From the NCBI GenBank assembly GCA_022925895.1, contig JAKSYS010000618.1:1-37417 (forward strand): a DNA stretch of 37,417 nucleotides, written 5' to 3'. Both the position numbers and the translations under genes were made by a program. This DNA comes from Fragilaria crotonensis (lineage: Eukaryota; Bacillariophyta; Fragilariophyceae; Fragilariales; Fragilariaceae). This document shows positions 8,992-33,269 of the stretch, piece after piece. Under the pieces are notes generated by a model. It made no database searches. It was not told the origin of the DNA and saw only the letters and a program-made list of their open reading frames with translations. How positions within the stretch are numbered: position 1 is the first letter of the stretch; each line of letters begins with the position of its first letter.

Positions 8992-9007
8992 CAAACATGG
9001 CAAAGCA
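8992..9007. repeat. Target-site duplication, right copy
   Basis: CAAACATGGCAAAGCA, one base different from the left copy at 5863-5878. It marks the 5' (truncated) boundary of the non-LTR element. Immediately right of it the old Gag-Pol relic resumes. Confidence 0.8.
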
Positions 9008-11560
9008 TTGACTAGGGCAAAATGGCTCAGCCCAATTTCAGCGGAGGCCGGCTCTCAAGCTTGCTTTTGGAGTCTCAAGCGATGTGTCATATGGACACTA
9101 AATACATTGCATAGGTTCTGCTACGGTCTGACATGTTGCCAGGTTTTACCATCAGTGCTCTTGACTTGAACGCTGACACCTCCTATGCGGGTTCCAATAT
9201 GGCAGTGTTGAAATAAACTGGTGAGAAAGTTGCGCTATACCCTTTCTTGGAGAATCTGTATAGTGCTGTACAGGAAGTCCCAGCCAATTACCACAGAGTC
9301 AACAGTATCGGAAAGTCTATCTTCTAGGGTTGAGCTGTGGCTATTGGTCCTCTACGAAGCTCTGAACTGTGGCGAGCGCCTAAATGAGTTGCTCCTCTCT
9401 CCAAACCAGCCAAGTAAGGGCGGCTGGAAACAACTTGGTACACGATGAGGACGCACCCATTTGTTTCAACTTTACCTCATCACGCTTGATCACCATACCT
9501 GGAGAGTTCAAAGTACTCCTCAAAATGCATGGAGTCATGTCTAACGTTTTGACTTGCAAGCCAGTGGTTGAAGAGATTGACCAGTGCCAGCAGTCGGGCG
9601 CATTCCAATCATATGAATAAACAGAGATGATCCTGTGGGAACCGTACTCCTCTAAGTCATTGGCCGAACCGGAGGACACAGCTTGTTCTGCAAAAACTGT
9701 TCCAGAGGTCCAAGTGACACACAATACTCACTTTTGCGGCAACCATGTTGACAAATGTGAGTCGGAGACGAGCTGTACTTGAAAGACGTGGTGGCATGCT
9801 CCAATCCTCACCAAATGGTGAACTGCGGTTGCAGCTTGACTAAGCCTCCAGAACCCCATTGAGCTCTCAGATGAAATGATGTTGCATCTCAATTGATTAC
9901 ATCAGTCAACGTCAAATGGTTTGCAGTGAACGGGGATGTTTTAGTTTTTTTAGAAAAGAGGGCGGAAGGTTCAGTCTGTTAGATATTGGTGGAAGAGTGG
10001 CAAATCTTTGCGGTGTCTCTGCGCAACTGAGATCCGGTGATTACAAAGGAAATATTAGCCAACCGCTGGGGTAGTATTGGATTGTACACCGCATGCAAGA
10101 CACTGTTGAGGATGGCACATAATGGAGTAGGGAGAGTTATTCATCCAGAAGAGCCCAAATATTGCAATTCTTGGCAGTCCTATTTGCATTTGCCTACAAT
10201 AAGTTCTTAGCATATGGAAACAATGTTTTCAACCACCCCATAACCTCCACATCGCATGTGTGCACAGGTGTCTACAAAGGGCTTACTAGGGTCGTACAAT
10301 CTTTTCTACCCACTCAAAAGAGAAGCCAACGCTACCAATGCTTTGAATGTAGTGGCAGGGATGGATGTAGAGCAAAAAGCACTCAGATCTGATGGAGCCA
10401 ATGCTGAAGTCCGAGAAAGATCTGCTGTGCTTGCGAAATGAATATCACATAAAGCAGCAAGGGCAGAGCCATACAGTGCTGGTTGGCAAAGAAACAGAAC
10501 ACATAAAAGAGAAAATCAAGAGACGGTATTGAGCAGACGACGTTGCGTGCACGTGGCTGCGACGTCCCAGTGTTACACGGAGGGCGTGTGTCAATGGAGC
10601 AAAGCAATAGGAGAGGGCAACAGTACGGAGGACACGCCTAATTCGATTCGTACGAGGGTGTCTGGCATAACGACCCTGCTGTCCAGTTTCGTGAAGACTT
10701 GTTGAGAATGCTGAGTTGATTGATTGGAGTTGCCAATGATGTCAAATGTCAGTTGACATTTTTGGTACTGCCTTAATGATCCTGCAAGATATAGGCCAGG
10801 TCAACGGTTGTTCCTGTGGCCAAAGACAAAGTGTTGGATCCCGATGTTTGAGCAAGAATTGTTGAGCTTCTTGATTTGTCAATGAAAGAGAAGATTGGTG
10901 ATACACTGATTGACGATGAGATTGACGAAGCGCTCGTTGACGCATTCATGCACCAGATTATGTGTTTATACCCGACTTGCCAGATGAGCCTGGCGTACGA
11001 TGATAAGTCCTTGATGGCAGAAGTGCTGCTATCACCAAAAATGGGATGGTCACTAAGGCAAGAAGAGTAATGGGAAGGAGACGTGATGCGGATGAAGTCC
11101 AGATGGAAAACGGCATCCGATACTGGATACGAGGCAATATGAGGTTGGATTTCAAGATGCTGGTGGTGGAACAGATATCTTCGGCAAAAAGTATCATTGC
11201 CAAGAACCACTCGTCCCAGGTCAATGACACAACAATTCTTGAGCAAGTCTGTCCTCAAGAAGCAACACGATAATGCGATTGCTAATCACCGAGCTCATGA
11301 AGTAGATCATCCGGGATGCCTCTGAGAACGGAGAAACTCAGATTGCCGACTTGTTGACAACTCCGATTGAAGGAACAACTTGCTCATTGGTTGTGTGTCA
11401 TCATGGTAAGGGATTTCAAAAGCCAGTGCCACCCCTCATAACGAAAAGAGAACTATTGGTTGGACAACCAAGTGTCACTGACGGTGCCATCTGAATGACG
11501 ACGGCGGCTTTTCATGCAATTCCGGCGGTTCAGTGTGCATGATAAACGAGTTGGGACGAG
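9008..11560 (+). pseudogene. Decayed Pol (protease, integrase, linker) of the copia-type relic
   Basis: Fragments appear in Pol order. Near 9,150-9,300 a protease-like tract reads LDLNADTSYAGSN, then TGEKVALYPF and YSAVQEVP, resembling the HADT...AGSN protease of diatom elements. Near 10,260-10,500 integrase-like pieces follow: NLFYPLKREA, LRSDGANAE and RAEPYSAGWQ, recalling the FYPLKxKxEA, SDGAKE and EPYSPWQN motifs around the second catalytic D and the E. Near 10,875-11,270 come KIGDTLIDDEIDEALVDAF, AEVLL, a GRRRDAD tract and PILDTRQYEV, which fit the linker between integrase and RT. Stops and frame changes are frequent and no RT motif is readable after 11.3 kb, so the RT is deleted or too decayed. 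Matches are from memory of the family style; a translated search would settle them. Confidence 0.5.
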
Positions 11561-12439
11561 TGGCCATTGCATGGGGACCAATTCAAGACATCAATAATAA
11601 TGTACCCCAACTGCTGCTGGGCAGATTGGAGGATAAACCAAGGCAGCACCAGCAGGTGATGCTGGCAAGTTGACTCCATCAGAGATAGATGGCATAGAAA
11701 AAGTATGCTGGATCCATAAAATCTATGTATGAAATACTGTAGACAACACAAGGAAAACTCTGACACCCTCGTATGTTAGGACCGCCGCCCACCGGCACGT
11801 ATTATGGTGTATCATAGTATCATTCATCATACCAGATCGTTATATAATCTTATGTGTTGACTGTGTCACGTTTGTGATGACGATACTATGAATTTCAACC
11901 TACACTGCACTGTGACAAGATTCCATCTGTCTACTGTGCTACTCTGAGGTCATCTACAGAAATGAGAAATAAGATTTTAAATATCTGCCTGATCCCTATC
12001 TAGTTCTGCTTGAAATGCCCAAATGATTTTGACACATTGTTTGACAACTTGCTTTGTCTTTGATGCAATTAATGTTACTAGAATGACCGGTATTGTCGTG
12101 GCTTAAAATAGTGAGACGACTATAGCTAGTCTGTCTCAAGAATACAGGAGGGGGCATTGACTAAGGAGGATTGCCAGGTGATAAACTGTTGTGCTCCCAG
12201 AAAGGTGGAGTGAATCCAGGAATCCAAGTGGTGCTGTAACCATGCTACTCTGGTTAGTTGATGGTTTTATTAACGTTTAGGGCAAGTCAAGGATGAAGTT
12301 GACATGACAACAGCAAAAGTGGACACTCCTGCAAGTATGGGCAGTGGGTGGAGACATGATGGAACTTCAAAGTTCATCAAACTGTACCAATCTTGCTAAT
12401 GACGTTGGGGAACGCGCGCAGTTAGAAGCAGTGGACGGT
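11561..12439. other. No gene recognised, left flank of the young copia element
   Basis: AT-rich sequence with short open stretches only. It could hold the decayed 3' part of the older relic and, from about 12,170, the left part of the relic that continues right of the young copia insertion. I found no LTR or RNA gene. Confidence 0.4.
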
Positions 12440-12445
12440 GAGGTA
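12440..12445. repeat. Target-site duplication of the copia element, left
   Basis: GAGGTA directly precedes the TG of the 5' LTR and is repeated at 23061-23066 directly after the CA of the 3' LTR. Copia duplications are usually 5 bp. Because an A precedes TG at both LTRs, a 5-bp GAGGT reading is also possible. Confidence 0.85.
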
Positions 12446-12818
12446 TGTCAAGATCTACTGTACTACTGCTCACGATGTGTCCAGTAATACTGTGTCATGT
12501 GAACAGTACTCGGACAACAACGATAGTCCAGTATCTAGTATCTGTTCCGGTGATCGCGACAGTACTGATGGTTGGACTGTTGTCCAAGCCAAGATCAGAA
12601 CAAAGAAGGCTAAAGAGTCCAGGAGGACTAAAGAGTCTATTGTTGCTGCTAATGGGATTCACAAGTATGTTGTGAATGGGAATGCAAGTGCAATTGCTGG
12701 GAATGGAACCCAGCATTATTAGAGTAACACTATAAGCACACAATACTGATAAACGAAATTCACTACGGTAGTAACGTCGTACTGAATAATATTATACGGT
12801 ATCAAGGAATATTTAACA
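12446..12818 (+). repeat. 5' LTR of the copia element
   Basis: The 373-bp repeat starts TGTCAAGATC and ends ATTTAACA. Against the 3' LTR I see one substitution (A at 12523 versus G at 22762) and one 3-bp tandem indel (AGTACT versus AGTAGTACT near 12,560). Its first three quarters contain an open frame, which in the 3' copy is the tail of Pol. Confidence 0.93.
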
Positions 12819-12830
12819 CGTTTATAAACG
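12819..12830. repeat. 12-bp palindrome where the primer site should be
   Basis: CGTTTATAAACG, a perfect palindrome, directly follows the 5' LTR. The usual TGG start of a tRNA-3'-end primer binding site is absent, so the primer may be an internal tRNA fragment, as in Drosophila copia. Confidence 0.55.
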
Positions 12831-12854
12831 ATCAGTTTATATTCAGATAAAGCA

Positions 12855-13350
12855 ATGGTTGAAGAACAGACAGAGTCCGGGTTTGGAACTACTGTTCGGG
12901 CTTTCGCCTTTGACGGCGACGAAACCAAGTACCGGTCATGGGAAGGTAAGACTCTTGCCCTCGCCGGTTCGAAGGGATTCCTACTTGCATTAACCAAGGA
13001 GAGTACTGGTACAGCTCTCACGGTGGAAGAGTTCGAGTACGGAGTGGTCGAGGTACCAGGCGTTGCGGTCACTGGTGGTGCTGTGGGCGCTCCTACGACG
13101 CGCCCTACGACAATGTCAGAGAACCGAAAGTACCTTGCGAAGGCTGCAGCTTGGACATATCTCGTCGCGAGCTGTACCGATAAAGCGTACGCACTTATCG
13201 AAAGGTGTGACGGCGATCCGTTTAAGGCCTGGGCCATACTACAGGAGAAGTACTGTGCCACCGACGCGGAAGAAAATTATCCCGAACTTGATCAAGCATT
13301 CAACGATTGCAAATTGGATGGGACTAAGAAGGATCCAGAACTTTGGTTTA
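12855..13350 (+). pseudogene. Gag N-terminal part of the copia element, cut by the Harbinger insertion
   Basis: The frame starts at ATG 12855, 36 bp after the LTR. It reads through about 165 Gag codons (FDGDETKYRSWEGKTLA, then KAWAILQEKYCATDAEENYPELDQ and DPELWF), the fold typical of copia Gag (UBN2-like). At 13350 the Harbinger terminal repeat begins. The frame stays open for 21 more codons of transposon sequence and stops at 13415. The rest of Gag resumes at 18153, where WF is followed by NDMDHLNMRLARI once the TTA duplication is discounted. Gag would assemble the virus-like particle in the cytoplasm. The interruption makes this copy unable to produce full-length Gag-Pol. Confidence 0.9.
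13348..13350. repeat. TTA target-site duplication of the Harbinger element, left
   Basis: TTA lies immediately before the GGGGCG terminus and is repeated at 18150-18152. TTA fits the 3-bp TWA preference of PIF/Harbinger transposases. Confidence 0.9.
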
Positions 13351-13366
13351 GGGGCGTTGTTAACTC
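13351..13366 (+). repeat. Harbinger terminal inverted repeat, left
   Basis: GGGGCGTTGTTAACTC, the exact reverse complement of 18134-18149. The match continues more weakly from 13432 once the interposed ~58 bp is skipped. Confidence 0.92.
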
Positions 13367-14917
13367 CCATGCGTATCACCCAAATTTGTATCAGGCAGTT
13401 GTGAACTTAACGTAAAATATTTTTTTAACTCACCCGAAATTCCGTGATACAAACATTCGTTCCTAACTCAATTGATGGTATCAGGATGAAATCTGACGCA
13501 TCCACAATCATTATAACGGTCCACATAACGTCGCACACATTAATTCGTTCGTTCAGAGCAATGTGACTCTTGTTGTCGTAAACATGCAGTGCTTGGTTCA
13601 GTCCAGCACAAACGACGAACAGATTCTTGACTCGCAAACACAACGCAAGAGTTGGTGATTCAACGAGACCCGCCATTTGGCAAGCGAGCTCTTACTATTC
13701 CGACTATGATTGGAAACCCTTTTCGGTTTCCATTACTTGGAGTGGCATCTTGAATATGATAGGCGAGTAAAACCCTGCTTGAAGACATGCATACCGAATC
13801 GTCAAAGGATGTGTCTGCTCGCCAGCATGTGTTGGCAAGAGATAGATTGTGATCGTTAATTTGAGCAACCTTGGGAAAGAAATGTTTCTGATTCCTTGCC
13901 TGCTGCTGGGGCTCTTGCTTCTTGGATTTGAAGTCACAGCAAACGAATCGGATGGCAAAGCAACATGACTAGCTATTGCAGCAAGTGATCCCAATGCAAC
14001 GGCAGATACGACAAGTGGTGCAAACGCAGTTTTGCTTTGCAGCAGTTAGATCGCGGGTTGCTGGTCGATTCGAAGGAGTAGCAATAAGGTGGTTCAACAT
14101 CGTTAGGAGTTGTTCTTACGTTGAGTGAAGGAGGACTCAAATCCAACGGCAACGGTGCCAGGATGGAACTACGTCAGTCTGGCCAATTGCACTTGATGAT
14201 TCCGAAGGAGAGGGGATTCCTGATGGAACGCACATGTGTGGCATCGGCATCGTTGGGTTTCACGAAGGAATTTCAGTTGGGCCTCCAGATGTTACAGACA
14301 ACACAGGAGGAGCCCCTGCTGTACGCACTCCCATTGTTGGAGGCAAGGTTGACGGCATCATGATGGTCAGGAACAACGGGATCCTGGTTGCTGGTGGGTT
14401 GGAAGCGAAGGTAGCTGCAGTAAGAATGCTTTCTTATCGGCGGAGATCCGTTGAGCTGCCAAGATCTCCTCGCACCAGTCTCTAGTTGTACTTTCAAATT
14501 GAACAACAGCAAGTCACATCTGAATGTATCAAACAACAAGCAACGTCACCTTAAATTAGTCGAGAGTGTACAATTATGCTGTGCACAAAGATGAAATGCA
14601 TGTTCGGGCGCTTGGCATTGTCGTCTCAACTCAACAATAAGCCACCATAAGATTTGTTCTCAGGCTTGTTGTGTGGTACTGACAAGAGCACTTCGACTTC
14701 GGTCCTCTGTTTGGTGGGCGAACTGACCAGGTATGAGACCTGAGGCAGCCATTCACGACTTGCTGTCACCCAGAAGGAAGAGTCACCACGATCAGTTTCT
14801 AATAGGAGTTTGTACCGGTGGGAGTCGTCGTCATTTGAACCACCATGGCTGGAGTCTTCTTCATTATTTCAACCAGCACGGTGAGTTCATAAAAATTGAA
14901 TCTATCTTTGTGTAACA
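13367..14917. other. Left arm of the Harbinger element, no intact gene
   Basis: Two antisense open stretches (13994-13704 and 13676-13425) and a plus-strand one (14234-14485) look protein-like but are broken. The plus-strand piece reads GIGIVGFHEGISVGPPDVT and onward, and its homologous-looking reading enters from another frame just upstream (WNYVSLANCT near 14,165). The antisense piece starts with an alanine-rich hydrophobic tract (APLVVSAVALGSLAAIA). I do not recognise either. They could be captured host gene fragments or decayed transposon DNA. The promoter of the accessory gene presumably lies at its right end. Confidence 0.35.
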
Positions 14918-16312
14918 ATGGCTTCGCAAGAATTGTTGGAAACAGAGACTCGATGGTTGCTATCCGCGAGTCTTGACAATGTGGTGCGTGATCATACTGA
15001 GTTTAAGTCTATCGTATCAATCAACAATGTGGGTATTGCACAATTACCTGTTAGATTGCTACGTCGCTTCTGTGCAAAGCTGAAGGTCAGTGGCTACAAA
15101 AATCTTAATCGAGATAGCACTATCAAACTTATTGCTCAGCGGATTTTGAGTCATGAGATCGAGGAAAGGTTGTACCCCAAGGCACCTGATGATATTCCGA
15201 CTGAAGAAGAAGGCGAAGGACATTTACCAAGTTCACATCTGTTGCAGGATACCACCAGCAGCATTCTCTATTCGGCATCAAATACGAGCAGTGAGGAGGA
15301 TGCTTCACCCGCCACTAATACTTTGCTCCTTTCCGTTGCGGAGGAGCCTCCGGGTGCAGTGCATGTTTCGAAGTCCAGAAGTGATGCCCCTGGAAGGAGC
15401 AGCGGCAGCAAAGCAAAGAAGAAGAACACCAGCTCACCGCCCACATCGGTCACTCAGATGGGGACCTACATCCGTGCAATCAATGTCTTCTTCGATCAAA
15501 AACACCGAAACGATGTCTTCAGTCTTGGGGCAACCCCGTCCATGCAAGAACTGGATGCAAGATCTGATATTCGAGTGAAGGCAGTTTACAACAGAATGCT
15601 CGTGACTTACCTTGATCAGTCGATCCCACATATTGGTGCTGTTGCATTTGCCGATGACCCATACCTGCCATCAATGGGCGTGTATGATAATGCTGCATTG
15701 GAGTTTGATGTGCTCACCTCGGAAGAGCTAAAGGACACCCTTGCTTTTGTTAACCGCTTTTACAAGATTGCACACCGAAATAACCAAAAGTCTGGAAGTC
15801 ACGATGACTTCCATAACTTTACTCGTGACAAGGCTTATGTCTTTTATTACCACCTTTGGTTGCAACACCTTCCAAACCTGTTGTGTATTGCTGTGCCATC
15901 GCTTCCACCTGGCATTGCAACCGACAGCACATTGCATCCATCCAATAGCGCAACGGCTCGTAGAAGAAAAGATGCAGGCTCCAAGAGGAAGGGAAATGCC
16001 TCCGCTGATGCATTAGCGGCTGCAATTCTGGAGGTGGGTCGCTCTTCATCGAAAAAGTTGTTGGTATTGGAAGAAATGAATGCATTGAAGAAAGTGAATG
16101 CAATTGTTGACCGCGAACGAGCCCTTCTTGCTCTGATGGGCGAGTATGACGTGAGTCTGAAGAGGAAGATTGATGATCTTGATGGATACACCTCGGACAT
16201 GGAGGAAGAGAAACAAGTTGCAAGGACTGTCATCGAAATGATTAAAAAGAAAAGGAACGAGGTGATTAAATCACTTGAGACATCGCACCACCAGCCTCCA
16301 ACAGCAGGCTAG
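14918..16312 (+). CDS. Harbinger accessory protein (putative DNA-binding, SAP-like N-terminus)
   Basis: An uninterrupted 464-codon frame starting at ATG 14918. Residues ~40-80 (LPVRLLRRFCAKLKVSGY, then a TIKLIAQRIL helix) resemble the helix-turn-helix of a SAP/HeH domain, which would bind AT-rich DNA. Residues ~80-185 are acidic and then serine/lysine-rich, a likely disordered linker with a basic KAKKKN cluster. Residues ~185-340 form a globular region that I cannot name. Residues ~355-460 are charged and helical (KKLLVLEEMNALKKVNAI, EEEKQVARTVIEMIKKKR), a probable coiled coil. Its place beside a Harbinger transposase suggests the role of the second Harbinger protein, normally Myb/SANT-like, which brings transposase to the nucleus and the ends. 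No clear SANT tryptophans are visible. The stop is 112 bp from the convergent transposase stop. Confidence 0.7.
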   Translation: MASQELLETETRWLLSASLDNVVRDHTEFKSIVSINNVGIAQLPVRLLRRFCAKLKVSGYKNLNRDSTIKLIAQRILSHEIEERLYPKAPDDIPTEEEGEGHLPSSHLLQDTTSSILYSASNTSSEEDASPATNTLLLSVAEEPPGAVHVSKSRSDAPGRSSGSKAKKKNTSSPPTSVTQMGTYIRAINVFFDQKHRNDVFSLGATPSMQELDARSDIRVKAVYNRMLVTYLDQSIPHIGAVAFADDPYLPSMGVYDNAALEFDVLTSEELKDTLAFVNRFYKIAHRNNQKSGSHDDFHNFTRDKAYVFYYHLWLQHLPNLLCIAVPSLPPGIATDSTLHPSNSATARRRKDAGSKRKGNASADALAAAILEVGRSSSKKLLVLEEMNALKKVNAIVDRERALLALMGEYDVSLKRKIDDLDGYTSDMEEEKQVARTVIEMIKKKRNEVIKSLETSHHQPPTAG

Positions 16313-16424
16313 CTTTCAGCGGACACATAGGGGACTTGGGGGACTCGATAAGAAAACAACGGTAAATTCTACAACTTCCTAGCTACTACATTAGATCAAT
16401 CAAAATGGTGCTGACGGCATGCAT

Positions 16425-17714
16425 CTACATAAGATCAATATCGTGAAGCTCGTATCTATGCCGTTCCAGATTTTCAGCAGGTCGTCGAATGGCAAGATTG
16501 GCAACACGTCTCACAATGATGTCCCGCATTTGCGATGTACCTGGTATGTGAACAAGTGGCTCTACGGTTGGTAAGTATCCCCAGCCGAGATCAGCACCAG
16601 GCATTGGCAAAATCTCTCTCAAAGCTACAGCATCGTCCACAAACTGGTCACCGTCCTGGTTAATGCAGAAGTTGTGCAGCTTACTGCAACATTCAAGAGT
16701 AATCGCAGACATCTTTAAGGAAGTCTGAAGGGGAGTGCGTAGCACTCTCCACTTGTTGGACATCAAGCCAAACGCCATCTCAATCCGAATCCTCAACTGA
16801 CTCAAACAGAAGTTGTAGGCGTCGTTGTTGGCATTGCTTCTCTGGGAACCCGTGAAGGGTACGAGCATCTTTTCACTTACAGAATATGCAGCATCTCCAA
16901 CCAAGTATTTCCCAATGGGTAAGGCTTCCATCAATGCCGGTAATGATGTCCTCTCAAAAGCAAGTTGATCGGCACACTTCCCTGGAGCAGCAACTGCAAA
17001 AAAATTGAACCGTGATCGATAGTCACACACAGCTTGTACGTTCAAGCCATACACGCCATAGTGCCCAGATCTAAAGGCACCGGGATTATGTCCTGAGTCT
17101 GCCATAGACGGTTTTACAGTAACAGCCAAATAGCCATCGATGCAACCGACACATCCCCGCATGAGCTGATTCAAACTTCTTGACTCAAATTGCGAGCTTA
17201 CCAGATCAAGTTCTTCAGCACTCTGTGGAAATGCGATGGCCAATTCAGGTGCTGCATTGACGGCATCAAAGAAGATATCACGACACCGATAGACAGAAGA
17301 AAGGCTCATACCCATAGATATGTGAAGATCAAGACTTGGGCACCCTGATAGCCATCGGAGTCCAGTAGCCATCACAATCTCAGGTGGAATGGGCATCACA
17401 CCGGGCGAATGGTAAGCAATGAGCACAATACGTCTCCCTAGTATCCGTTGCAATGCCACAAAGGCATTGTTCGACATTCGATACATCCGTTCAAAGAGTT
17501 GTTCGTGGCGAAGTTGAACAACATGCTGGTCCCAACAGATCCGGGTGTGTTGCCACTTGGCAGCCCTCGTTTGCTTGTCCTCTAGCAGATATGACGCCGC
17601 AGCAAGCATCAGAAGTAGTGTGTCTTCATTGTCATCGTCAAACTCATCGTCAGAATCATCATCAAGTGCTGGAATCAAGCTCATGATTGATGCACTAGGA
17701 TTTGACACAGACAT
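16425..17714 (-). CDS. PIF/Harbinger DDE transposase
   Basis: An intact 429-residue frame from ATG 17714. The catalytic domain is DDE_Tnp_4 type: D193 (GCIDGYLAV), D274 (YLVGDAAY) and E312 (RIRIEMAFG, followed by LMSNKWRVL), with typical spacing and the GHYGVYGLNVQAVCD strand between the first two. The C-terminal LHNFCI motif is also characteristic. The N-terminus has an acidic run (~18-32) and a helical region (~110-150) consistent with the family's helix-turn-helix (WLSGCPSLDLHISMGMS). The enzyme cuts at the terminal repeats and joins them to TWA targets in the nucleus. Length is normal and I see no missing catalytic residue, so this copy may be active. The TTA duplication at the element's own ends agrees. 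Confidence 0.95.
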   Translation of the reverse strand: MSVSNPSASIMSLIPALDDDSDDEFDDDNEDTLLLMLAAASYLLEDKQTRAAKWQHTRICWDQHVVQLRHEQLFERMYRMSNNAFVALQRILGRRIVLIAYHSPGVMPIPPEIVMATGLRWLSGCPSLDLHISMGMSLSSVYRCRDIFFDAVNAAPELAIAFPQSAEELDLVSSQFESRSLNQLMRGCVGCIDGYLAVTVKPSMADSGHNPGAFRSGHYGVYGLNVQAVCDYRSRFNFFAVAAPGKCADQLAFERTSLPALMEALPIGKYLVGDAAYSVSEKMLVPFTGSQRSNANNDAYNFCLSQLRIRIEMAFGLMSNKWRVLRTPLQTSLKMSAITLECCSKLHNFCINQDGDQFVDDAVALREILPMPGADLGWGYLPTVEPLVHIPGTSQMRDIIVRRVANLAIRRPAENLERHRYELHDIDLM

Positions 17715-17992
17715 TGTAAATTGTTACTCAATCCTCGGGTGAATACTCATATGAAGATACCAAACTGTTGGTTGTCAATGGCTGTATCTCCTGGGACATG
17801 ACCATTAAGCAATAGACAATAAATCAGATCGAACATCAAAGTAAAAGAAAACAGAGCAGTTGATCAGGTCTTCATTCTATATCCTCTTCTGCCGTCGATG
17901 TAAATACTTTCTTCTGGTGGCAACTACGATGTGCGTTCATGACTATTTGATATTGGAGAAGTTATTTTGACGTTGGCCTTACACATGTTCTG
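17715..17992. other. Upstream region of the Harbinger transposase
   Basis: Noncoding sequence between the transposase start and the right subterminal hairpin. It should hold the transposase promoter, read leftward, but I see no distinctive motif. Confidence 0.4.
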
Positions 17993-18054
17993 GTATCCGT
18001 GATCCTGATCCTGATATTTTCCTTTCAAGAAATGGGTATCAGGATCACGGATAC
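17993..18054. repeat. Subterminal hairpin of the Harbinger element
   Basis: GTATCCGTGATCCTGAT (17993-18009) is the reverse complement of ATCAGGATCACGGATAC (18038-18054), with a 28-bp spacer. GATCCTGATC words are repeated around it (for example GGGATCAGGAT just to the right). Such subterminal repeats are candidate binding sites for the transposase or the accessory protein. Confidence 0.8.
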
Positions 18055-18133
18055 GGGATCAGGATAACGGCGAAAAATAACCGCATGATACAAAAATACC
18101 CGGAGTTGATACCAGTTTTCGTGTATTTTGGGT

Positions 18134-18149
18134 GAGTTAACAACGCCCC
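18134..18149 (-). repeat. Harbinger terminal inverted repeat, right
   Basis: GAGTTAACAACGCCCC, the exact reverse complement of 13351-13366, followed by the TTA duplication at 18150-18152. Confidence 0.92.
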
Positions 18150-18152
18150 TTA
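18150..18152. repeat. TTA target-site duplication of the Harbinger element, right
   Basis: TTA directly after the right terminal repeat, matching 13348-13350. Copia gag continues at 18153. Confidence 0.9.
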
Positions 18153-20168
18153 ATGACATGGATCACTTAAACATGCGGCTCGCTCGCATCAACTTGAAGT
18201 ATCAGAAGGATGACCTACAGTTGAAGAGTCATATGATGTCAGCTATGTCCAACGACTATGAGAGCGTCATCATTAAGTTCAGGGGAGACCTGCAGGAGAC
18301 TTCGCTTGCTAAGTTACGTAAGGAAATAGTACTCCAGTACAAGACTCTTGTCAAGACCGTTGGAAAATCCGGTTCGGAATCAGTCTTAAATGCAAATGTC
18401 TCAAAGCAGCCGTGGAGAAAGTTCAAAGGGACTTGCAGGAACTGTGGTAAGATTGGTCATAAAGCAAACGAGTGCAGATCAAGTAAAGTTGAATCTACGG
18501 AAGTTACTACTAAAGGCTCTGGTACTCCTGCTGGAGACAAGTCACATGTAACTTGCTATAACTGCCAACAGAAAGGTCACTTCATGAACAAGTGTACGCT
18601 CCCAAAGAAGTTGAAGTCCGACGCTACTGCCGATATGGCTATGTTTGTAGGAGCTTCATTTTTGGATGACCCAGTTGACGTTAATCCTACTGTTGCTGAT
18701 ACTATTGCGGACAGCTTTTTCGACTTTTTCGACAATTCGATAACATTTAACGACGAAGACTTGACTTGTGACCTAGTCCCGTTTTGGGGCAATGAACGAG
18801 AAAACATTATGGTAACAACACTCGAAGACGATGACGTCTCGATCGATACGGCAGTTCTCTCGAATGACTATGTCTGTGCCGCATCCCCCGTTGGACTTAC
18901 GGAGGAATGGCTACTGGACTCTGGTGCTACGTGCGGGGTCACATACGATAACAAGCTTATGACAAATTTGACACCCTCGAATCGGGAGATTACCATTGGT
19001 AACGGCGACAAGGTTGCCACGCTGGGACAAGGAACGGTTTCGCTCACGGACAGTCATGGTCAGACGATCAAGCTAACTGATGTCTATTATGCTCCGGCAT
19101 TTACAAAGCACATTGTTAGCATGCGGAAACTAATTGACGATGATTGGTCCTTTAGTGTCGCCGATAAGACGGCGTTTATCTTCACGGATCCGGTTACGAA
19201 GGGTTCCGTGAAATTTGGTCGGAACGAACGTGATATGCTGTACTATTTGATTGGTACACGCACAGTTAAGGCCGATAACAATCTACTCGTGAACAGTCTT
19301 ACAACTGCCCCAGTCATTTTGGATATTAACATTGCGCACGGCCTTCTTGGACATCCTGATACAAGGACGGTTACGGCTATGGCTACGAAGCACGGTTGGA
19401 CACTTACTGGGACGGTTAAGCCCTGCGGATCCTGTGCACTCGCTAAGGCTCGTGCTAAAGCGATACCAAAAAGTACTATGACCAAGGCCAAGACTCCAAG
19501 GGAGCGACTTTTCTTGGACATCTCTGGCCCCTACTCCGATTCCCTAAATCAAAATAAGTACTGGCTTCGCATTGTGGACGACTATAGCCGGTACAGTTGG
19601 GACTGCTTCCTGCCACGTAAGAGCGGCATTCACGTACCGCTATTGAAATTGGTGGTTATGAACAAAGCTGCTGGCAAGCCTTGCCGATACCTCCGTTGCG
19701 ACAATGCGGGAGAAAACGAATCCTATGTGCAGCAAGTGTGCGCGGAAAACGACATACAGTTGGAAATGACCGCCCCGAATACTCCCCAGATGAATGGTGT
19801 TGTGGAACGGAGCTTTGCCACATGTAAGGATCGTGCTTTTGCTACAATGTACTGCGCTCGATTTTCATTGGCTACACAAGGATTACTATGGCCAGAGGCA
19901 GTGAATACTATCACGAAAATTGGAAACCACTTGCCTCGCCAGGGGCTGACACAGGACCCACATACGGCTTGGTTCGGATCAGATGTCGTACCCCCTCGAA
20001 TTCTGGGTCATCTTCAACCGTTTGGGAGGATTGCTTACGTCACCGACAGAACGAAGCTCAAGGCGAAACTTGACCCACGATCAACGAAATGCGTCTTTAT
20101 CGGATATGCATCCGACCACTCTGGCGATACGTATAAGTTTTATAACCCATTGACAAAAAGTACTATCA
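18153..20168 (+). pseudogene. Copia Gag C-terminus, protease and integrase
   Basis: One open frame continues Gag after the Harbinger insertion (open from 18128). Numbering from 18128, two CCHC zinc knuckles lie at residues 103-116 (CRNCGKIGHKANEC) and 143-156 (CYNCQQKGHFMNKC). They bind element RNA. The aspartic protease active site is DSGA (264-267), which would cut the polyprotein. The integrase has its HHCC finger (H404, H409, C433, C436) and catalytic D464 (LDISGP), D525 (CDNAGEN) and E560 (NGVVERSFA), all present, followed by the GKLDPR-like tract KLKAKLDPRSTKCVFIGY. The frame runs into the MITE at 20169 and stops at 20221. All catalytic residues are intact, so only the insertions and the later frameshift disable it. 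Confidence 0.93.
20166..20168. repeat. TCA target-site duplication of the MITE, left
   Basis: TCA before GGGCGTGTCC and again at 20607-20609 after the other end. Removing one copy plus the MITE restores a continuous Pol frame across the site (KSTI then MSRDVHQW). Confidence 0.8.
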
Positions 20169-20606
20169 GGGCGTGTCCATTCGGGTTTTTTTCACATCCA
20201 AGTTTCCAAGTTTCCAAGTGATCGAATTAGTCGAATTTGGGTTCGATTTATGCTTGGTCGATGTAGTGTCCATTCGGACAAAAGGAGAATCGAAGTTCCG
20301 AACTCCCAAGTTTTACTTCCTCCGAGTAGAGTTGAATGCTTGGGGAGTAGAGTCATTTCAAAATTTTCTGGCATTGCGAACATGAGTGTCGTATCCACTG
20401 GATTAGCTGGTACAGAGAACAGGTTATGAAACTTGGATTTCTGAACTTGGCTAAAAAAATCTCGTTAACTTGGATGTCCAAGTTAACGAAAGACGAGTCC
20501 CACGAAACACAAAATCCAAGTTGAATCACGAGTCGACTAGTTCGATCACTTGGAAACTTGGAAACTTGGATGTGAAAAAAACCCGAATGGACACATGGAC
20601 ACGCCC
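20169..20606. mobile_element. 438-bp MITE in copia pol, probably Harbinger-like
   Basis: The element is non-coding, with terminal inverted repeats of roughly 60 bp. Both ends start GGGCGTGTCCAT and share a stretch of CATTCGGG, a T-run, CACATCC, CAAGTTTCCAAG repeats and GTGATCGAA. The right repeat has an extra 8 bp (a duplicated ATGTGTCC-like word). A third copy of GTGTCCATTCGG lies inside at about 20,266. Three-base duplication (TCA) and a GGGCG terminus resemble the PIF/Harbinger group, although TCA is not the strict TWA. It needs a transposase from elsewhere; the nested Harbinger element has only loosely similar ends. Confidence 0.85.
20463..20488. repeat. Perfect 12-bp inverted repeat inside the MITE
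   Basis: CGTTAACTTGGA and its reverse complement are separated by 2 bp (TG). Transcripts of this region could fold into a tight hairpin. GTTAAC also occurs in the Harbinger terminal repeat. Confidence 0.85.
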
Positions 20607-20609
20607 TCA
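20607..20609. repeat. TCA target-site duplication of the MITE, right
   Basis: TCA after the right end of the MITE, matching 20166-20168. The next bases complete an ATG codon that is internal to Pol, not a real start. Confidence 0.8.
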
Positions 20610-22200
20610 TGTCCAGAGACGTGCACCAGTGGATGGAATGGCATGGTCGCATAACGGCAACGGACAATCTTGACTTATTTACGGAACTTGAACTGCTTAA
20701 GTCGGAATCCATCATATTGCCTGCAACACCGGTTATCCCCATATTGACGGACGCAGACTTTCCTGACGATGATGTCATCGAGGATATGCCGCCGCCAGTC
20801 TCAAGCCCTACGGAGGAAATTCCTGCTCCCATTTTCACCGATACTACGGATGTCGCCCCTCCTGCGCGGAGGAATTTGACATCATCCTTTGGCGAAGGGG
20901 CAGTAACTCGCTCACGCACACGCCAAGTGACAATGGCTGATGTTGGTCACAGGAGTGACGACAACCTTGACTTGAACTTGGAGGGTATCACGGAATTACT
21001 AATGGCTATGAATGCCTCGCTACAGTCTGATCCACAGCTTGGAGTGCCTAAGAATTTCAAAGAGCTTTTGAAGCTCAAAGATAAAGACTGGCTTAAGTCT
21101 ATGCATAACGAACTGGAGAACTTCTTATCAAGAGATGCTTGGGAGTTCCTCAAGAGGACATCGTTACCTCCGAATCGTAAGACACTACGTAGCAGATGGA
21201 TCTTCAAGCAGAAGCTCGACGGTACCAAGAAATCCCGCTCAGTCATACGAGGATACGAACAGGAACCGGGAGTGGACTTCAACGAATCGTACTCCCCTTT
21301 GGCCACCAACACTACGATCAGGGTTGCTCTGGCTATGGCGTTGTACTACTACAAAAAGTTCAAGGATTGGGTCACGCTCATGTTGGACGTTGAAGCTGCC
21401 TTCCTAAATGCAAAAGTCGACTCGGATATATACATCGAAATGCCTGAGGGCTTATATGAGTACATGCTTTCAAAAGGCATTGATTTGAGCGACATGATAA
21501 TCAAGCTACGAAGTGCTCAGTATGGATTGGTGCAAAGCCCCAGACTATGGATGGAGACATTTTCCAAGATTCTGAAATCTCTTGGGCTCATCCAATGTAA
21601 ATCTGACCCGTGCCTATTCTGTCTATTCGACAAAGACAAGTCTCTACTGGCACTAGTGGTCGTGTACTGCGATGACTGCATTATAACCGGACGCTTGAAG
21701 TGGGTTAACGAATTAAAGATGGGAATATCTAAACAAGTAAAAATCTCTGATCTCGGAAAATTGAGGCGCCATCTGGGAGTTGACTACGAATTCGGACACG
21801 ACGAACATGGCCAATATATCCAATCTACAATGAAGGATTATCACGAAGCCATGGTGCGAGATTTCGAGAAGGAACAGTACTGTTCGATCAAGACGTTTTC
21901 TACTCCCGGCGCAGCTGTCTCTCCGCCATTGCGTTCCTCACCCGACGACGAAATTATTATGATTGAGGAATTCCGTTCGTTTGTGGGACGGATTATGTTT
22001 GCATGCGGCAAGACCGAGCCTACGCTATCTAACGCCTGCAGAGAATTAACGGTGCATTTGACGGCACCAAACAAGGAACATTGGACAGCTCTGACGCATC
22101 TCATGGGATATATCAAGACAGTAAGTAATCAAGGTATAAAGATGAGAGCCCCGAAGGATACCAGAGTGGTGGCGTTCGTTGACTCTGACTACGCGTCAGA
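20610..22200 (+). pseudogene. Copia reverse transcriptase and start of RNase H
   Basis: The Pol frame resumes after the MITE and is open to 22258. Residues are counted from the ATG at 20609. A variable acidic linker (~20-110) precedes the RVT_2-type RT: WIFKQKLDGTKK (~197-208), GVDFNESYSP (221-230), catalytic D260 in LMLDVEAAFLNA, YGLVQSPRLW (305-314) and the metal-binding YCDD (353-356), where most copia RTs have YVDD. The thumb tract KISDLGKLRRHLGVDYEF follows. RNase H begins with VAFVDSDYASD, supplying its first catalytic aspartate, and then goes out of frame near 22,200. After that the homology continues in the next frame. RT copies the RNA inside particles. The short reading after 22,200 in this frame is not genuine. 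Confidence 0.92.
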
Positions 22201-22964
22201 CAGGTGTCTCCGGGTACTTGGTGACCGTTGGAGGTTGCCTGGTGTCATGGCAGTCTAAGAAACAGACTGGTGTGACATTGTCATCCACCGAAGCGGAATT
22301 CGTCGCAATGAGCATGGCCGCTACAGAGGTAAAATTTATCGTATCGCTCCTTACCGAAATGGGCAATGGCCCCTTGGACAGCAATGGCCCCTCGGGCAGT
22401 GGCTCTCCGCCTTTGCCAAGTATTTTACGGGAAGACAATACCGGTGCGATCTTTATGGCAAATAATACAGCAATCGGTCAACGGACTAAACATGTGGACA
22501 TTCGGTACCGCTTCGTGAACGACATGATTCTATGCAACGATTTATTGGTGGAACACATCAGCAGTGGCGAAAACCCCAGTGACACTATGACAAAGAATCT
22601 TCCATTGAACCTATTCGCAAAACATGCCACCCTCATTTCGGAAGGGCTATTGGGCAATTTCTACGATCCCCAGAACACGGAGGATGTCAAGATCTACTGT
22701 ACTACTGCTCACGATGTGTCCAGTAATACTGTGTCATGTGAACAGTACTCGGACAACAACGGTAGTCCAGTATCTAGTATCTGTTCCGGTGATCGCGACA
22801 GTAGTACTGATGGTTGGACTGTTGTCCAAGCCAAGATCAGAACAAAGAAGGCTAAAGAGTCCAGGAGGACTAAAGAGTCTATTGTTGCTGCTAATGGGAT
22901 TCACAAGTATGTTGTGAATGGGAATGCAAGTGCAATTGCTGGGAATGGAACCCAGCATTATTAG
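22201..22964 (+). pseudogene. Copia RNase H remainder plus a Pol tail encoded in the 3' LTR
   Basis: The frame is shifted relative to the RT frame (open from 22179). It reads GVSGYLVTVGGCLVSWQSKKQ, then STEAEFVAMSMAATEV (RNase H glutamate), REDNTGAIFMANN (second aspartate), TKHVDIRYRFVNDMI and SGENPSDTMTKNLP (last aspartate). These are the standard end of a copia Pol, normally closing soon after. Here the frame continues past 22685 into the 3' LTR for about 92 codons (serine-rich, then a basic KIRTKKAKESRRTKES tract) and stops at 22964. That tail matches no domain I know. The single frameshift near 22,200 separates it from RT and may have arisen after insertion. Confidence 0.88.
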
Positions 22965-23060
22965 AGTAACACTATAAGCACACAATACTGATAAACGAAA
23001 TTCACTACGGTAGTAACGTCGTACTGAATAATATTATACGGTATCAAGGAATATTTAACA
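22685..23060 (+). repeat. 3' LTR of the copia element
   Basis: The 376-bp repeat runs TG...CA and is preceded by a short purine tract (GGAGGA, a weak polypurine-tract candidate). About 280 bp of it is the in-frame end of Pol. The 96 bp after the stop are AT-rich (TAATATTATACGG could serve as a TATA-like or processing element, but this is uncertain). Confidence 0.93.
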
Positions 23061-23066
23061 GAGGTA
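23061..23066. repeat. Target-site duplication of the copia element, right
   Basis: GAGGTA after the 3' LTR, identical to 12440-12445. Confidence 0.85.
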
Positions 23067-23700
23067 ATGGCCGGCTTTTTGCTGCAGGGTTCTAGGCAGG
23101 AATGGATGATGGCAACACACAATGTGAACAGGAGCATCATAGTTACAACAATGCATTGGAAAGCAAAGAAACACATCCCAATGAGGCAGCATGGCGGGAA
23201 ACCCTCATCATATGCTGGGACTTGGGTGCAAGCATTTCAATCACACCTGGCCCCTTCTCTCTGACTTCCATGGCCTGGTCACCTCACCTGCTGGAAAAAC
23301 ACTCCGGTCAAGGCATTGCCATAGGCCAATGCAAAGTCACTTGGGCTTTTCATCATCAGCTTGGCAATTAGAGACTTCATAAGGCCGTTGCGTAGTATCA
23401 AGTTCAAAAAATTGATGTTTGACTGTTGTCGATGACAAGTTTGCTCCAAGCGTCTTAGCTACCTCAACAAACAATAACTATCAAACTCAAACATTGCACA
23501 CTTAGTGGCGTCGCTTACAAGAACACCAATTAAGACCCTGTCACAACATGGGTGACCCCGAAAAGGAAGCAACCTTCCAACGTCCGAAGACCATTGATTG
23601 TTGGAACATGCTAATTTCAAAAGGTTCAGTTCCTTTGGCATCCAGGTGTTGTTAGCACACGAGAGAAGCAAGTAGTATCCAATTGCAAACCGCATGACCA
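23067..23700 (+). pseudogene. Relic of a retroelement aspartic protease
   Basis: Reading the plus strand from about 23,100 gives ETLIICWDLGASISITPGPF, then HSGQGIAIGQCKVTWAF and, across a frameshift, a DVxLLS tract near 23,410. This resembles the protease of diatom-type retroelements (FDTGASxSITP..., GxGxVxW, YVPxAxVRLLSPQ). The catalytic DTG appears as DLG, so it would be inactive. The tract begins just right of the young copia element, and sequence just left of it (to 12,439) may be the rest of the same relic. No further Pol domains are readable. It is short and decayed, hence moderate confidence. Confidence 0.45.
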
Positions 23701-24120
23701 CTTACCTCATTCCCGGAATGCGCCGCATACAGTACTGCAAACCGCACAGATGCCCATTTCCGGAAGTTTTCCTTTGTCTGTTATTAGAGACAGAGCTCCC
23801 TCTGTTAATACAAACTATTGTTTCTCTTTCCGTTGACCTGGAATGCACTCTTGTGATGCATTTGATGTTCAAATTTATTCGTGACAGCATTGTACACAAA
23901 AACTCCTAATACAGTGCCAAACAATGGTGATACTATTATCTTGCTCCAAGCGACACAAGTGTCTGTCATTGGCAAGACACCCCCCGCCTTCGACGCACAG
24001 GTTCTCCGACTACGCGAGGTATGTAGTGTCCTAAACATGTGGCGGTGCGGCGCCCTTACTATGCTGCCGCACTCGCCTACCGTTCTTGGATAGTGGCCAC
24101 CGTTACTCGTGTTCTGGTGG
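23701..24120. other. No gene recognised
   Basis: Short open stretches on both strands, none recognisable. GC content appears to rise towards the recombinase relic that starts at about 24.1 kb. Confidence 0.4.
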
Positions 24121-24887
24121 TCACTTTTCCTCGGCCATTGTGCTCAGAGGAGCTGGGCAGGGTGGGCCACAATGTTCGGTGGTGGAAAGGGGTGGGGAGT
24201 TAAGGCGGAAGTTGCCGCCGCACAGCATGGTGGTGGCAACGCCGGCCATAACTGGCTGGGCCTGGACATGTAGTAGGTAGCAGTTCATTTTGTCAGCCCG
24301 CCAGCGCCCGATGAGGCAAATGCGATCCAAGTAAATACCGCCACACAACATGGCCATGGCACCGGCGGGCTGAGATGTCAGTTGCATTAAAGTCGGTGAG
24401 ATGGGGGGAGAAGACCGACGGTCTGGCGGAGGATGATGGTTATGTCGGACAGCAGGACGTATGATTGCCAAGGAGCGTGGTGGTGTGGCCAGTACGCGTT
24501 GAGGGCCGTCGGAGGGGATGCGCCCACTTGATGGAGGTGAAGAAGGCGTTGTGTAAGCGCCTGAACGGGGCAGAGGGAAGGATGGCCACTGCAGCCGTGG
24601 CCCAGGGTCTCTCCGCGAATGCCGTTCTTTTGCTACGTGAACGTCAAAGTGACAAATGGCAGCAAGGAGTTCTGCGGGCGTGCAGAGCAGGGGAATGAGG
24701 GGTCGTTGGCCAATCCAGACGCCAACGTCCTGGAGACGGAACAAGTCGTCGGCAGTGGTACGGGGGATACCACAGTACTTGCCTGGCCGGAGCAAGAAGG
24801 AAAGGCGAGCAGCATGCAATCCCCAGCAGCGGAGACGAGGGAGGCAGGAGTCAGGGCGAGAGTCACGTTCAGTGCCTGTCGCACCAC
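24121..24887 (-). pseudogene. Tyrosine recombinase catalytic domain, decayed
   Basis: In alternating frames: VRQALNVTLALTPASLVSAAG, ARLSFLLRPGKYCG (box I arginine), FRLQDVGVWIGQRPL, TPAELLAA, FVTLTFT, an off-frame GHPSLCPVQALT tract, then AGAMAMLCGGIYLDRICLIGRW, where GRW carries the conserved His/Trp, and CYLLHVQAQPVMAG with the candidate nucleophile tyrosine. The HxxR-type box expected as SLRAGGA reads SQPAGA, so its arginine is gone. The enzyme would integrate circular cDNA by strand exchange through a 3'-phosphotyrosine. At least two frameshifts and the lost arginine show inactivity. Family recognition is by remembered motif style. Confidence 0.6.
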
Positions 24888-24899
24888 GGAGAGGGGCTT

Positions 24900-25390
24900 T
24901 TATCTAACCCGCGTCGGGGGTGGATTGGCGCGCTTCCAGGCTTGGAGGAGTGCGAAGATGCAAAAATCGAGGTCGCCGAAGGAGTTCAGGCAAGGGTCCG
25001 CGGCCCCCTTCCAGGCGAACGCCTGCGCCAAGTGACGGAGGGTGTCCTCCACCGTGCGAGAGCGGACGGGTCGGTGATGAGGGTCTATGACAGGGTCCCC
25101 CAGAATGTCAGGGAGGTCGGAGCGGACGCCCGTCGAGACACAGAAACGCTCCCAACGGCCCCAGGTGGAGGCTGCAGAGTTGCACTGATGTGCAAACTGG
25201 TGGTGTGCGTAGAGCGCTGTCGTTACAGCACTCCAGTCAGCGCGGAGAGTATCTCGGGCGGTGCGAGGGTCAGAGAAGTCCAAGTTGTGACCTGCTGGGG
25301 GTACAAAGAGTTGATGTGTGTGAGAGGAGTTCCGTGTCCAACAAATCCCAGCGCCGGCTGGCGTCGTTGGCCATAACGTTGGCTGGGCCC
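24900..25390 (-). pseudogene. Tyrosine recombinase N-terminal (core-binding) domain
   Basis: The open frame covers FVPPAGHNLDFSDP, then NSAASTWGRWERFC (the TxxxYxxxWxxFC-like helix of recombinase N-terminal domains), DPHHRPVRSRTVEDTLRHLAQAF, a DPCLNSFGDLDF tract and LLQAWKRANPPPTRV, after which it stops at 24900. This block is very like the core-binding domain of multi-copy diatom recombinases. It would clamp the DNA half-site. The frame continues upstream to 25526, but the N-terminal part there is out of frame with the RNase H that should precede it. Confidence 0.55.
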
Positions 25391-25800
25391 GTGATATCAT
25401 CGAATTGCGGGACATAGCAAAAGAAGTGCTGATGCAAGGAACTGTGGCGTAGTAGGAGATATGCGCGGGTGGTGCTAGCGGTGAAAGACCCTTCAGAGGC
25501 CCAAGCAAGGGATGCTCGGTTGTCACCTGCCAGCCAGCAGACTGGGCGCTCAGTAGTGTCCGTGACTTGGGTGAGCGCGTAGGTGTGGGCTAGCGTCGCG
25601 GAGAGTTCCAGATCACCAGAAATGGAAATGGCACCCGCCTTCTTGTTGTCGCCGGTCACCACGTTACGTTGGATAACGGGTTGGAAGGCGGCTTGCCAGA
25701 CAAGAGAAGGGCGCCCCGGTAGAAACCATAAGCCCCCCCCCATGAATCGGCGACATGCGTCGCATGCCCCATAAGCGTTGGGGTCGCCCAGATGGACCAG
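25300..25800 (-). pseudogene. RNase H-like domain of the YR retroelement
   Basis: Within an open frame spanning 25270-26013, the genuine part reads GACDACRRFMGGGLWFLPG (first aspartate), LVWQAAFQPVIQ, SISGDLELSATLAHTYALTQV (glutamate helix), CWLAGDNRASLAWAS (second aspartate), STTRAYLLLRHSSLHQ and PANVMANDASRRWDL (last acidic residue). The order and spacing fit the RNase H domain that follows RT in DIRS-type elements. The first 70-80 codons of the frame (to its right) are shadow sequence, because the RT homology lies in another frame there. Confidence 0.6.
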
Positions 25801-26290: not shown

Positions 26291-26299
26291 GGTGCGGCA

Positions 26300-28750: not shown

Positions 28751-28758
28751 CAGTGAAA

Positions 28759-28778
28759 TGACGTCAATTATGACGTCA
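28759..28778. promoter_or_regulatory. Pair of TGACGTCA (CRE-type) palindromes
   Basis: TGACGTCA at 28759-28766 and again at 28771-28778, 12 bp start to start, slightly over one helical turn. This is the full palindrome bound by bZIP factors. In diatoms the half-sites TGACGT/ACGTCA act in CO2- and cAMP-responsive promoters. No intact gene follows closely; the next reading frame begins about 800 bp to the right, so function is uncertain. Confidence 0.4.
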
Positions 28779-29556: not shown

Positions 29557-29584
29557 GCAGCCTCGTGCAGCCTCATCTTTTGTG

Positions 29585-31543: not shown

Positions 31544-31551
31544 TTGAAGGG

Positions 31552-33230: not shown

Positions 33231-33269
33231 CACACTTTTTCAGGAAATCTTGAACGAGCGAAAGATTGA

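What the first reader, a model, noticed from the sequence alone, without database searches (positions are those of the whole stretch)
12440..23066. Three-layer nest of recent insertions with all duplications readable
A copia element with LTRs differing by one base and one 3-bp indel has received a full Harbinger transposon in gag (TTA) and a MITE in pol (TCA). Removing each insertion plus one duplication restores a continuous Gag-Pol frame (WF-NDMDH and KSTI-MSRDV). The near-identical LTRs limit the age of all three events, so the Harbinger family and the MITE were mobile very recently in this lineage.
Basis: seen in the sequence. Interest (0 to 1): 0.7.

Follow-up and report, generated by a model that had tools for sequence, protein, structure and literature searches.

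The report
Nested jumping genes in a diatom
A young diatom retrotransposon was hit by two different cut-and-paste transposons after it landed, which is ordinary genome traffic; the less ordinary part is that the large inserted transposon carries a decayed piece that resembles one of the host's own genes.

Summary
The three-layer nest is real. A copia-type LTR element (12446-23060, 6-bp target duplication GAGGTA) carries a 4,799-bp PIF/Harbinger transposon (13351-18149, TTA) and a 438-bp MITE (20169-20606, TCA). Three other near-identical copies in the same genome (two independent insertions) have both points empty with a single TTA and TCA. The LTRs differ by one substitution and one 3-bp indel, each private to one LTR; nothing suggests gene conversion.

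Corrections: Gag-Pol is not continuous without the inserts, because a private deletion of about 14 bp breaks the RNase H region near 22.2 kb. The Harbinger 'burst' is one insertion; its closest relative is 15-23% divergent. Only the MITE has a near-identical second copy. Many small indels in this assembly look like errors, so the date rests on one substitution.

Added: the host is a diatom, in size and contig count like the Fragilaria crotonensis SAG 28.96 draft. The Harbinger has two open ORFs with dN/dS 0.2-0.3 and carries an antisense segment 67% identical to a host locus; its relative carries a different host-like fragment in the same slot. A full-length relative of the MITE and a Gag-bearing non-autonomous copia family were found. 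Ordinary overall; the exchanged fragments deserve follow-up.

The parts
12440..12445 (.). Outer target-site duplication GAGGTA, left copy
   Evidence: 6-bp TSD also in 9 other independent insertions of this family and its 79% relative
12446..12818 (+). 5' LTR of the copia element, 373 bp
12819..12836 (+). Conserved post-LTR motif (candidate primer-binding or leader site) holding a 12-nt palindrome
   Evidence: 36 exact places in the genome; in none of the 63 tRNA genes listed (a capped list)
12855..13350 (+). gag, first part (ORF opens at 12855)
13348..13350 (.). TTA target duplication of the Harbinger, left copy
13351..18149 (-). PIF/Harbinger transposon, 4,799 bp (strand that of its transposase)
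13351..13366 (.). Left 16-bp terminal inverted repeat of the Harbinger
13351..13556 (.). Left end module, 206 bp, shared with short non-autonomous copies; carries GTATCA repeats
13629..14507 (-). Segment inside the Harbinger that matches, antisense, a host locus on C165/C28 (67% over 13629-14424, 79% over 14438-14507) with long open frames and a transmembrane-like stretch
14918..16312 (+). Harbinger ORF1, 464 aa, no Pfam match over cut-off and no PDB sequence match
16425..17714 (-). Harbinger transposase, 429 aa, DDE_Tnp_4
17957..18149 (.). Right end module, 193 bp, with GTATCA repeats; TIR 18134-18149
18150..18152 (.). TTA target duplication of the Harbinger, right copy
18150..20168 (+). gag end (two zinc knuckles), protease region and integrase of the copia element
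   Evidence: protease region placed by position, no Pfam match
20166..20168 (.). TCA target duplication of the MITE, left copy
20169..20606 (.). MITE, 438 bp, long TIRs; an 8-bp tandem duplication in its right TIR is absent from the C786, C383 and C53 copies
20607..20609 (.). TCA target duplication of the MITE, right copy
20607..22684 (+). Reverse transcriptase and RNase H region of pol; frame broken near 22.2 kb by a private deletion (14 bp against C75/C740, 13 against C298)
   Evidence: RNase H named by position and recalled motifs, no Pfam match
22685..23060 (+). 3' LTR, 376 bp; the pol reading frame runs on inside it to 22964
23061..23066 (.). Outer target-site duplication GAGGTA, right copy

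Best explanation
A copia-type LTR retrotransposon integrated here (6-bp staggered cut, shown by the duplication). Later a PIF/Harbinger element of one lineage pasted itself into gag at TTA, and a MITE of a second Harbinger lineage pasted itself into pol at TCA, probably moved in trans by a relative such as the one at C629 (inferred). That the copia came first is shown by empty sites in sister copies; the order of the two DNA transposons relative to each other is not shown. The copia copy is disabled by two inserts and a short deletion in RNase H. The Harbinger that landed is a two-gene element: a DDE transposase and a tail-to-tail ORF1 protein, probably the DNA-binding partner that recognises the GTATCA repeats in its two ends of about 200 bp (inferred). 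Between its left end and ORF1 it carries an old, decayed, antisense piece related to a host gene, acquired long before this jump (capture and its direction are inferred).
For: TSDs and ends; 3 of 3 sister copies (2 independent insertions) empty at both points with one TSD; private changes in each LTR; DDE_Tnp_4 with motifs CIDG, VGDAAY and RIEMAFG at or near 191, 272 and 310 (their reading as the catalytic triad is recalled); ORF1 tail to tail with a transposase at 18 of 22 ORF1 loci; dN/dS window versus C208 0.20 for the transposase and 0.29 for ORF1; GTATCA 7 times in 399 bp of ends versus 2 in 4,400 bp of middle; Harbinger-family TSDs at 6 of 7 distinct sites read: TTA at the window, C208, C832; TCA at C482, C150; TAA at C361; MITE-type TSDs TCA (window), TGA (C383, C53), TAA (C629); C629:16704-20329 with the MITE's TIR and a transposase carrying one stop; host-locus match 320 bits.
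Against: One Harbinger-family site (C125/C13/C149, shared flanks) shows no clean 3-bp duplication, nor does the near-identical MITE copy at C786. The assembly is noisy, so the RNase H deletion or the LTR differences could be errors, and the relatives disagree by one base on the size of the deletion. ORF1's role is unproven: no Pfam match over cut-off, no PDB match, poor model (mean pLDDT 45.9). The full-length MITE relative at C629 has a stop in its transposase frame, so the true mobiliser is not identified.
Confidence: 0.92

Rival explanations
1. The inserts predate the present copia insertion: a copy already carrying them was transcribed and reverse transcribed in trans, so LTR age says nothing about when they jumped.
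For: Possible in principle; non-autonomous relatives of this copia lack most of pol and yet spread (8 independent insertions with 6-bp TSDs), so movement in trans seems to occur.
Against: The other copies read carry neither insert at these sites (3 of 3 empty, 2 independent); the Harbinger occurs once at high identity in the genome search.
Confidence: 0.05
2. The LTRs look young because gene conversion homogenised them; the copia and its inserts are old.
For: Conversion between LTRs is a known process (recalled).
Against: The substitution is private to the 5' LTR and the 3-bp insertion private to the 3' LTR among six LTRs aligned. The copies are young throughout: internal pieces differ from the C75 copy by 14 substitutions in about 4,629 bases.
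Confidence: 0.03
3. The match between the Harbinger's inner segment and C165/C28 arose the other way round: the host locus holds a decayed or exapted piece of an older Harbinger.
For: One pair does not prove direction; the host locus frames have no Pfam domain and a DNA search found no other relatives.
Against: The locus holds open frames of 336 and 606 codons (stop to stop) and no Harbinger ends were listed there, while in the Harbinger the segment is split among frames; the C208 element holds a different segment, related to a tandem array on C218 and with CarboxypepD_reg and SdrD_B domains.
Confidence: 0.15
4. The nest, or part of it, is an assembly artefact of noisy contigs.
For: Same-locus contigs differ by many indels; the published assembly that this genome resembles is R9.4.1 Nanopore, Canu, Pilon (PMC9476933).
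Against: Three exact target duplications and complete element ends at the junctions; misjoins do not produce these.
Confidence: 0.01

Closest known systems
Ty1/copia LTR retrotransposons of diatoms (CoDi groups, PMC2806351, passages read)
   Same: LTRs, copia-type RVT_2, integrase-type domains upstream of RT, zinc knuckles in Gag
   Different: No tree was built, so the CoDi group is not assigned; 6-bp TSD in 10 of 10 insertions of this family and its relative, while a legend in PMC2806351 gives TTCC for Blackbeard; the pol frame runs about 90 codons into the 3' LTR
PIF/Harbinger DNA transposons
   Same: DDE_Tnp_4 transposase, TIRs, 3-bp TSD, two ORFs
   Different: TSDs TTA, TCA and TAA, i.e. 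TNA rather than TWA (the TWA rule is recalled); ORF1 shows no Myb/SANT match; host-like fragment inside
Pack-TYPE transposons (Pack-PIF of maize and rice, PMC8903248, abstract start and passages read)
   Same: host-gene fragment between Harbinger-type ends
   Different: Pack-TYPE are defined as non-autonomous; here the elements retain open transposase and ORF1
Gag-only non-autonomous LTR elements (TR-GAG, search listing only)
   Same: the 2.66-kb relatives keep LTRs, a Gag frame and zinc knuckles but only remnants of pol
   Different: their LTRs are about 21% diverged from those of the copia in this window

Membership tests
Ty1/copia superfamily | Copia-type reverse transcriptase | tested here: met
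   RVT_2 1.2e-37, over cut-off
Ty1/copia superfamily | Integrase encoded before reverse transcriptase | tested here: met
   Pol_BBD and SH3_retrovirus over cut-off, rve below its cut-off (21.8 of 32.6 bits), all in 18128-20221; RVT_2 in 20609-22258
Ty1/copia superfamily | LTRs beginning TG and ending CA, short TSD | tested here: met
   TGTC...AACA, GAGGTA; 6 bp in 10 of 10
Ty1/copia superfamily | tRNA-type primer-binding site | tested here: inconclusive
   the post-LTR motif is in none of the 63 tRNA genes listed, but only 63 of 2,258 candidates were scored
PIF/Harbinger | DDE_Tnp_4-type transposase | tested here: met
   2.4e-20, over cut-off
PIF/Harbinger | TIRs and 3-bp TSD | tested here: met
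   16-bp TIRs, TTA; clean TSD at 6 of 7 distinct sites read
PIF/Harbinger | Second, Myb/SANT-like ORF | tested here: inconclusive
   second ORF present and paired at 18 of 22 loci, but no Myb/SANT match in any of 4 members; fold model too poor to judge
MITE | Short, no coding capacity, TIRs, TSD, several copies | tested here: met
   438 bp, TCA, copies at C786, C383, C53 and a truncated one at C764; no ORF of 100 aa lies wholly inside it
MITE | Autonomous partner with the same ends | tested here: inconclusive
   C629:16704-20329 has the ends and a transposase, but its frame has one TAG
Pack-TYPE transposon | Host-gene fragment between the ends | tested here: met
   direction of transfer inferred
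Pack-TYPE transposon | Non-autonomous (no transposase) | tested here: not met
   open transposase and ORF1 in the window and C208 copies; so not filed as Pack-TYPE

The most novel reading that the evidence does not exclude
This diatom hosts a Harbinger lineage built of two conserved end modules of about 200 bp and an exchangeable interior: elements that still carry open transposase and ORF1 genes hold different host-gene fragments in one fixed slot next to the left end, so self-mobile elements, and not only defective Pack-type ones, shuffle host coding DNA.
Probability: 0.35. Interest if true: 0.5.

Novelty: new member of a known kind. Interest (0 to 1): 0.27.

Why it matters
A nest with each duplication readable gives a firm order of transposition events in a diatom, a group whose transposon activity is thought to be stress linked: in Fragilaria crotonensis 48 of 48 differentially expressed mobilome genes rose at pH 9.2 (PMC9732472, passages read). 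If the exchangeable-cargo reading holds, it would extend gene shuffling by DNA transposons from defective plant elements to transposase-bearing ones in a stramenopile.

Tried and rejected
Tried without result: an allelic empty site for the copia itself (flanks 11646-12445 and 23067-24066 have no second full-length match; the best others are 70% over about 305 bp and 78% over 102 bp). Self-priming by a short LTR segment was considered by eye and dropped because the pairing is not kept in the 79% relative; no fold was run. ORF1: no Pfam match over cut-off (window protein with E up to 10, best SOAR 0.055; 4 members with E up to 1, best E 0.055), no PDB sequence, poor fold, so no fold search was made. 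Transposase: no PDB sequence match. The tail of pol inside the LTR: dN/dS 0.86 over 87 codons, so purifying selection on it is not shown, although the frame is open in both families. C150:27549-33955 has the same ends and a 6.4-kb interior; the genome-wide transposase and ORF1 searches list nothing on C150, and three frames from the parts read (27549-31243 and 32251-33955) have no Pfam domain over cut-off; 31244-32250 was not read.

Rejected: gene conversion, assembly artefact, inserts older than the copia (see rivals).
Full report
Source and quality. The window is a whole contig (C579) of a 62,107,879-base genome in 881 contigs. It is a diatom (inference from the silicon-transporter family PF03842: 18 of 19 matches over the cut-off, best 646 bits, one open frame of 1,456 codons with three repeats). 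Two contigs (C880, C881) are dense in tRNA genes among the 63 listed and look like organelles; the remaining 879 agree in number with the 879 contigs, and roughly in size with the 61.85 Mb, of the Fragilaria crotonensis SAG 28.96 draft (PMC9476933, text read without the end of its reference list). Naming the species is an inference. That draft is Nanopore R9.4.1, Canu, Pilon. Pairs of contigs carrying the same insertion with the same flanks differ as follows (loci of the last three pairs overlap, so some differences are counted twice): C75 versus C740, 18 substitutions and 49 gap openings; C213 versus C574, 28 and 54; C219 versus C200, 1 and 23; C581 versus C725, 87 and 62. In three of four pairs indels dominate; the fourth may be true alleles. 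The measured diatom ratio is about 0.03 indels per substitution (4.77e-10 and 1.58e-11, PMC6604790, abstract and passages). Many small indels in this assembly are therefore probably errors.

Observation. LTRs are 12446-12818 and 22685-23060 with one A/G difference and one 3-bp indel; the outer duplication is GAGGTA. The Harbinger is 13351-18149, TIR 16 of 16, TTA; the MITE is 20169-20606, TCA. Three other copies with LTRs 98-100% identical exist: C75, C740 and C298. C75 and C740 share flanks, so they are taken as one insertion on two contigs; C298 ends at its contig end. In 3 of 3 the pieces either side of each insert overlap by exactly three bases: unoccupied sites with one TTA and one TCA.

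Broken frame. Each piece of the copia reads open apart from one place: ORFs 20609-22258 and 22179-22964 are in different frames. Against C75 and C740 this copy lacks 14 bp there, against C298 13 bp. The relatives also carry many small indels in these pieces, so whether any copy is intact is not judged here.

Age. The A is private to the 5' LTR and the 3-bp insertion to the 3' LTR among six LTRs aligned (the C740 pair was left out as a duplicate of C75). Gene conversion is thus not indicated. One substitution in 373 bp at the P. tricornutum rate gives about 2.8 million generations, with a Poisson 95% range of 0.07 to 15.7 million; at 100 to 365 divisions a year (assumed) that is about 8,000 to 28,000 years, range roughly 200 to 160,000. 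The rate is from another species and the count is one, so this is an order of magnitude. It bounds the inserts only if they came after reverse transcription, which their absence from the other copies supports.

Harbinger. The transposase (429 aa) has DDE_Tnp_4 and motifs read as the three catalytic residues (assignment recalled). Only one close copy was found; the next, C208:49493-54298, is 85% identical over the transposase, 77% over the ORF1 part and 83% at the ends, has TTA duplications and open ORFs of 465 and 434 aa. dN/dS between them is 0.20 (dS 0.51) for the transposase and 0.29 (dS 0.59) for ORF1, as expected of a lineage kept functional between jumps. Wider relatives of the transposase are many: 103 matches, with 98 of 216 candidates scored. 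ORF1 has no Pfam match over cut-off and no PDB sequence match. Its 32 matches merge into 22 loci, of which 18 lie tail to tail with a transposase within 3 kb; the script was given 27 of the 103 transposase rows. The four without are C514, C56, C599 and C777; one search lists no transposase on C514, C56 or C777, and on C599 only about 18 kb away. ORF1 is therefore a regular second protein of these elements. GTATCA occurs 7 times in the 399 bp of the two ends and twice in the 4,400 bp between, and 2 to 4 times in each of 6 ends of relatives checked.

Cargo. Window 13629-14424 and 14438-14507 match, antisense, a locus on C165 and C28 (99.5% identical to each other over 3,868 bp, taken as one locus on two contigs) at 67% and 79%. 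That locus has stop-to-stop frames of 336 and 606 codons with a Ser/Thr/Pro-rich part and a transmembrane-like stretch (read by eye; no Pfam match), and no Harbinger end is listed there. In C208 the same slot (49697-50889) instead holds a fragment with CarboxypepD_reg and SdrD_B domains over cut-off, 73-76% identical over about 310 bp to a tandem array on C218. The short relatives read keep the first 206 bp and the last 158-193 bp of the element. The picture is of conserved ends with exchangeable interiors. Two full-length elements with two cargoes are few, and the direction of capture is inferred.

MITE. Its copies are C786 (2 substitutions over 425 bp), C383 (6), C53 (7) and a truncated C764 (2), with gaps besides; TSDs are TGA at C383 and C53 and not clear at C786. 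C629:16704-20329 has the same TIRs, a TAA duplication and a transposase 36% identical to the window's, with one TAG: a full-length relative of the MITE, from a Harbinger lineage distinct from the other insert.

Copia relatives. Eleven LTR pairs 78-79% identical to this LTR lie 2.15 to 2.29 kb apart; by shared flanks they are 8 independent insertions. Five further partial matches (C16, C206 twice, C504, C1) were not read. The one copy read for frames (C41) keeps a Gag frame with two zinc knuckles and remnants of pol, and the others compared (C219, C460, C581) match the same kinds of pieces, so they probably depend on proteins in trans. Their LTR pairs differ by 0 to 4 substitutions, in three pairs also by gaps. 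Of both kinds together, 10 of 10 independent insertions with both flanks readable have 6-bp duplications (C298 lacks its right flank). In both families the pol frame runs on inside the LTR (to 22964 here), but selection on that tail is not shown (dN/dS 0.86).

Literature. The rows listed by searches for diatom copia elements (15 of 50), Pack-type and Harbinger capture (12 of 22, 12 of 48), diatom Harbinger (1 of 1, 15 of 33) and F. crotonensis with transposable elements (5 of 5) show no title or abstract start about this nest or about host fragments in diatom Harbingers; the library holds open-licence papers only. Pack-PIF elements of maize and rice are known and defined as non-autonomous (PMC8903248, passages). 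In F. crotonensis all 48 differentially expressed mobilome genes rose at pH 9.2 (PMC9732472, passages).

Verdict. Nested insertions are ordinary; the host-like fragments in transposase-bearing Harbingers lift it a little above that. On recheck the odds of two rivals were raised slightly (inserts carried along; reverse direction of the cargo) and those of the best explanation lowered by 0.01, because the evidence rests on few copies.

Noticed in passing
window 12819-12836: The motif right after the 5' LTR holds a perfect 12-nt palindrome; 36 exact places in the genome and 13 with the two middle bases swapped, which keeps the palindrome. None lies in the 63 tRNA genes listed; its role (primer site, dimer signal) is unexplained.
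   Followed up: partly
L023, L024 and the other 2.66-kb copies (8 independent insertions): A non-autonomous, Gag-bearing relative of the copia has more insertions listed (8) than the full-length copia (3) and LTR pairs with 0-4 substitutions.
   Followed up: partly
C150:27549-33955 (L045, L090, L042): A 6.4-kb stretch between Harbinger-type ends with TCA duplication and no Harbinger ORF listed on that contig; it holds a stop-to-stop frame of 465 codons on the minus strand.
   Followed up: partly
window 32325-33230 and 35702-36490: An Ulp1-type protease frame (Peptidase_C48) and a MULE transposase fragment lie near each other, perhaps parts of one Mutator-like element.
   Followed up: no
window 6191-8951 (minus): Two overlapping open frames, one with an RNase H match below cut-off, look like a decayed retroelement.
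   Followed up: no
window 24000-28000: A stretch of about 58-61% G+C in a background of about 46%, with no Pfam match in the three frames tested.
   Followed up: no
G000 C97:29749-33762: Three silicon-transporter repeats in one open frame of 1,456 codons.
   Followed up: no
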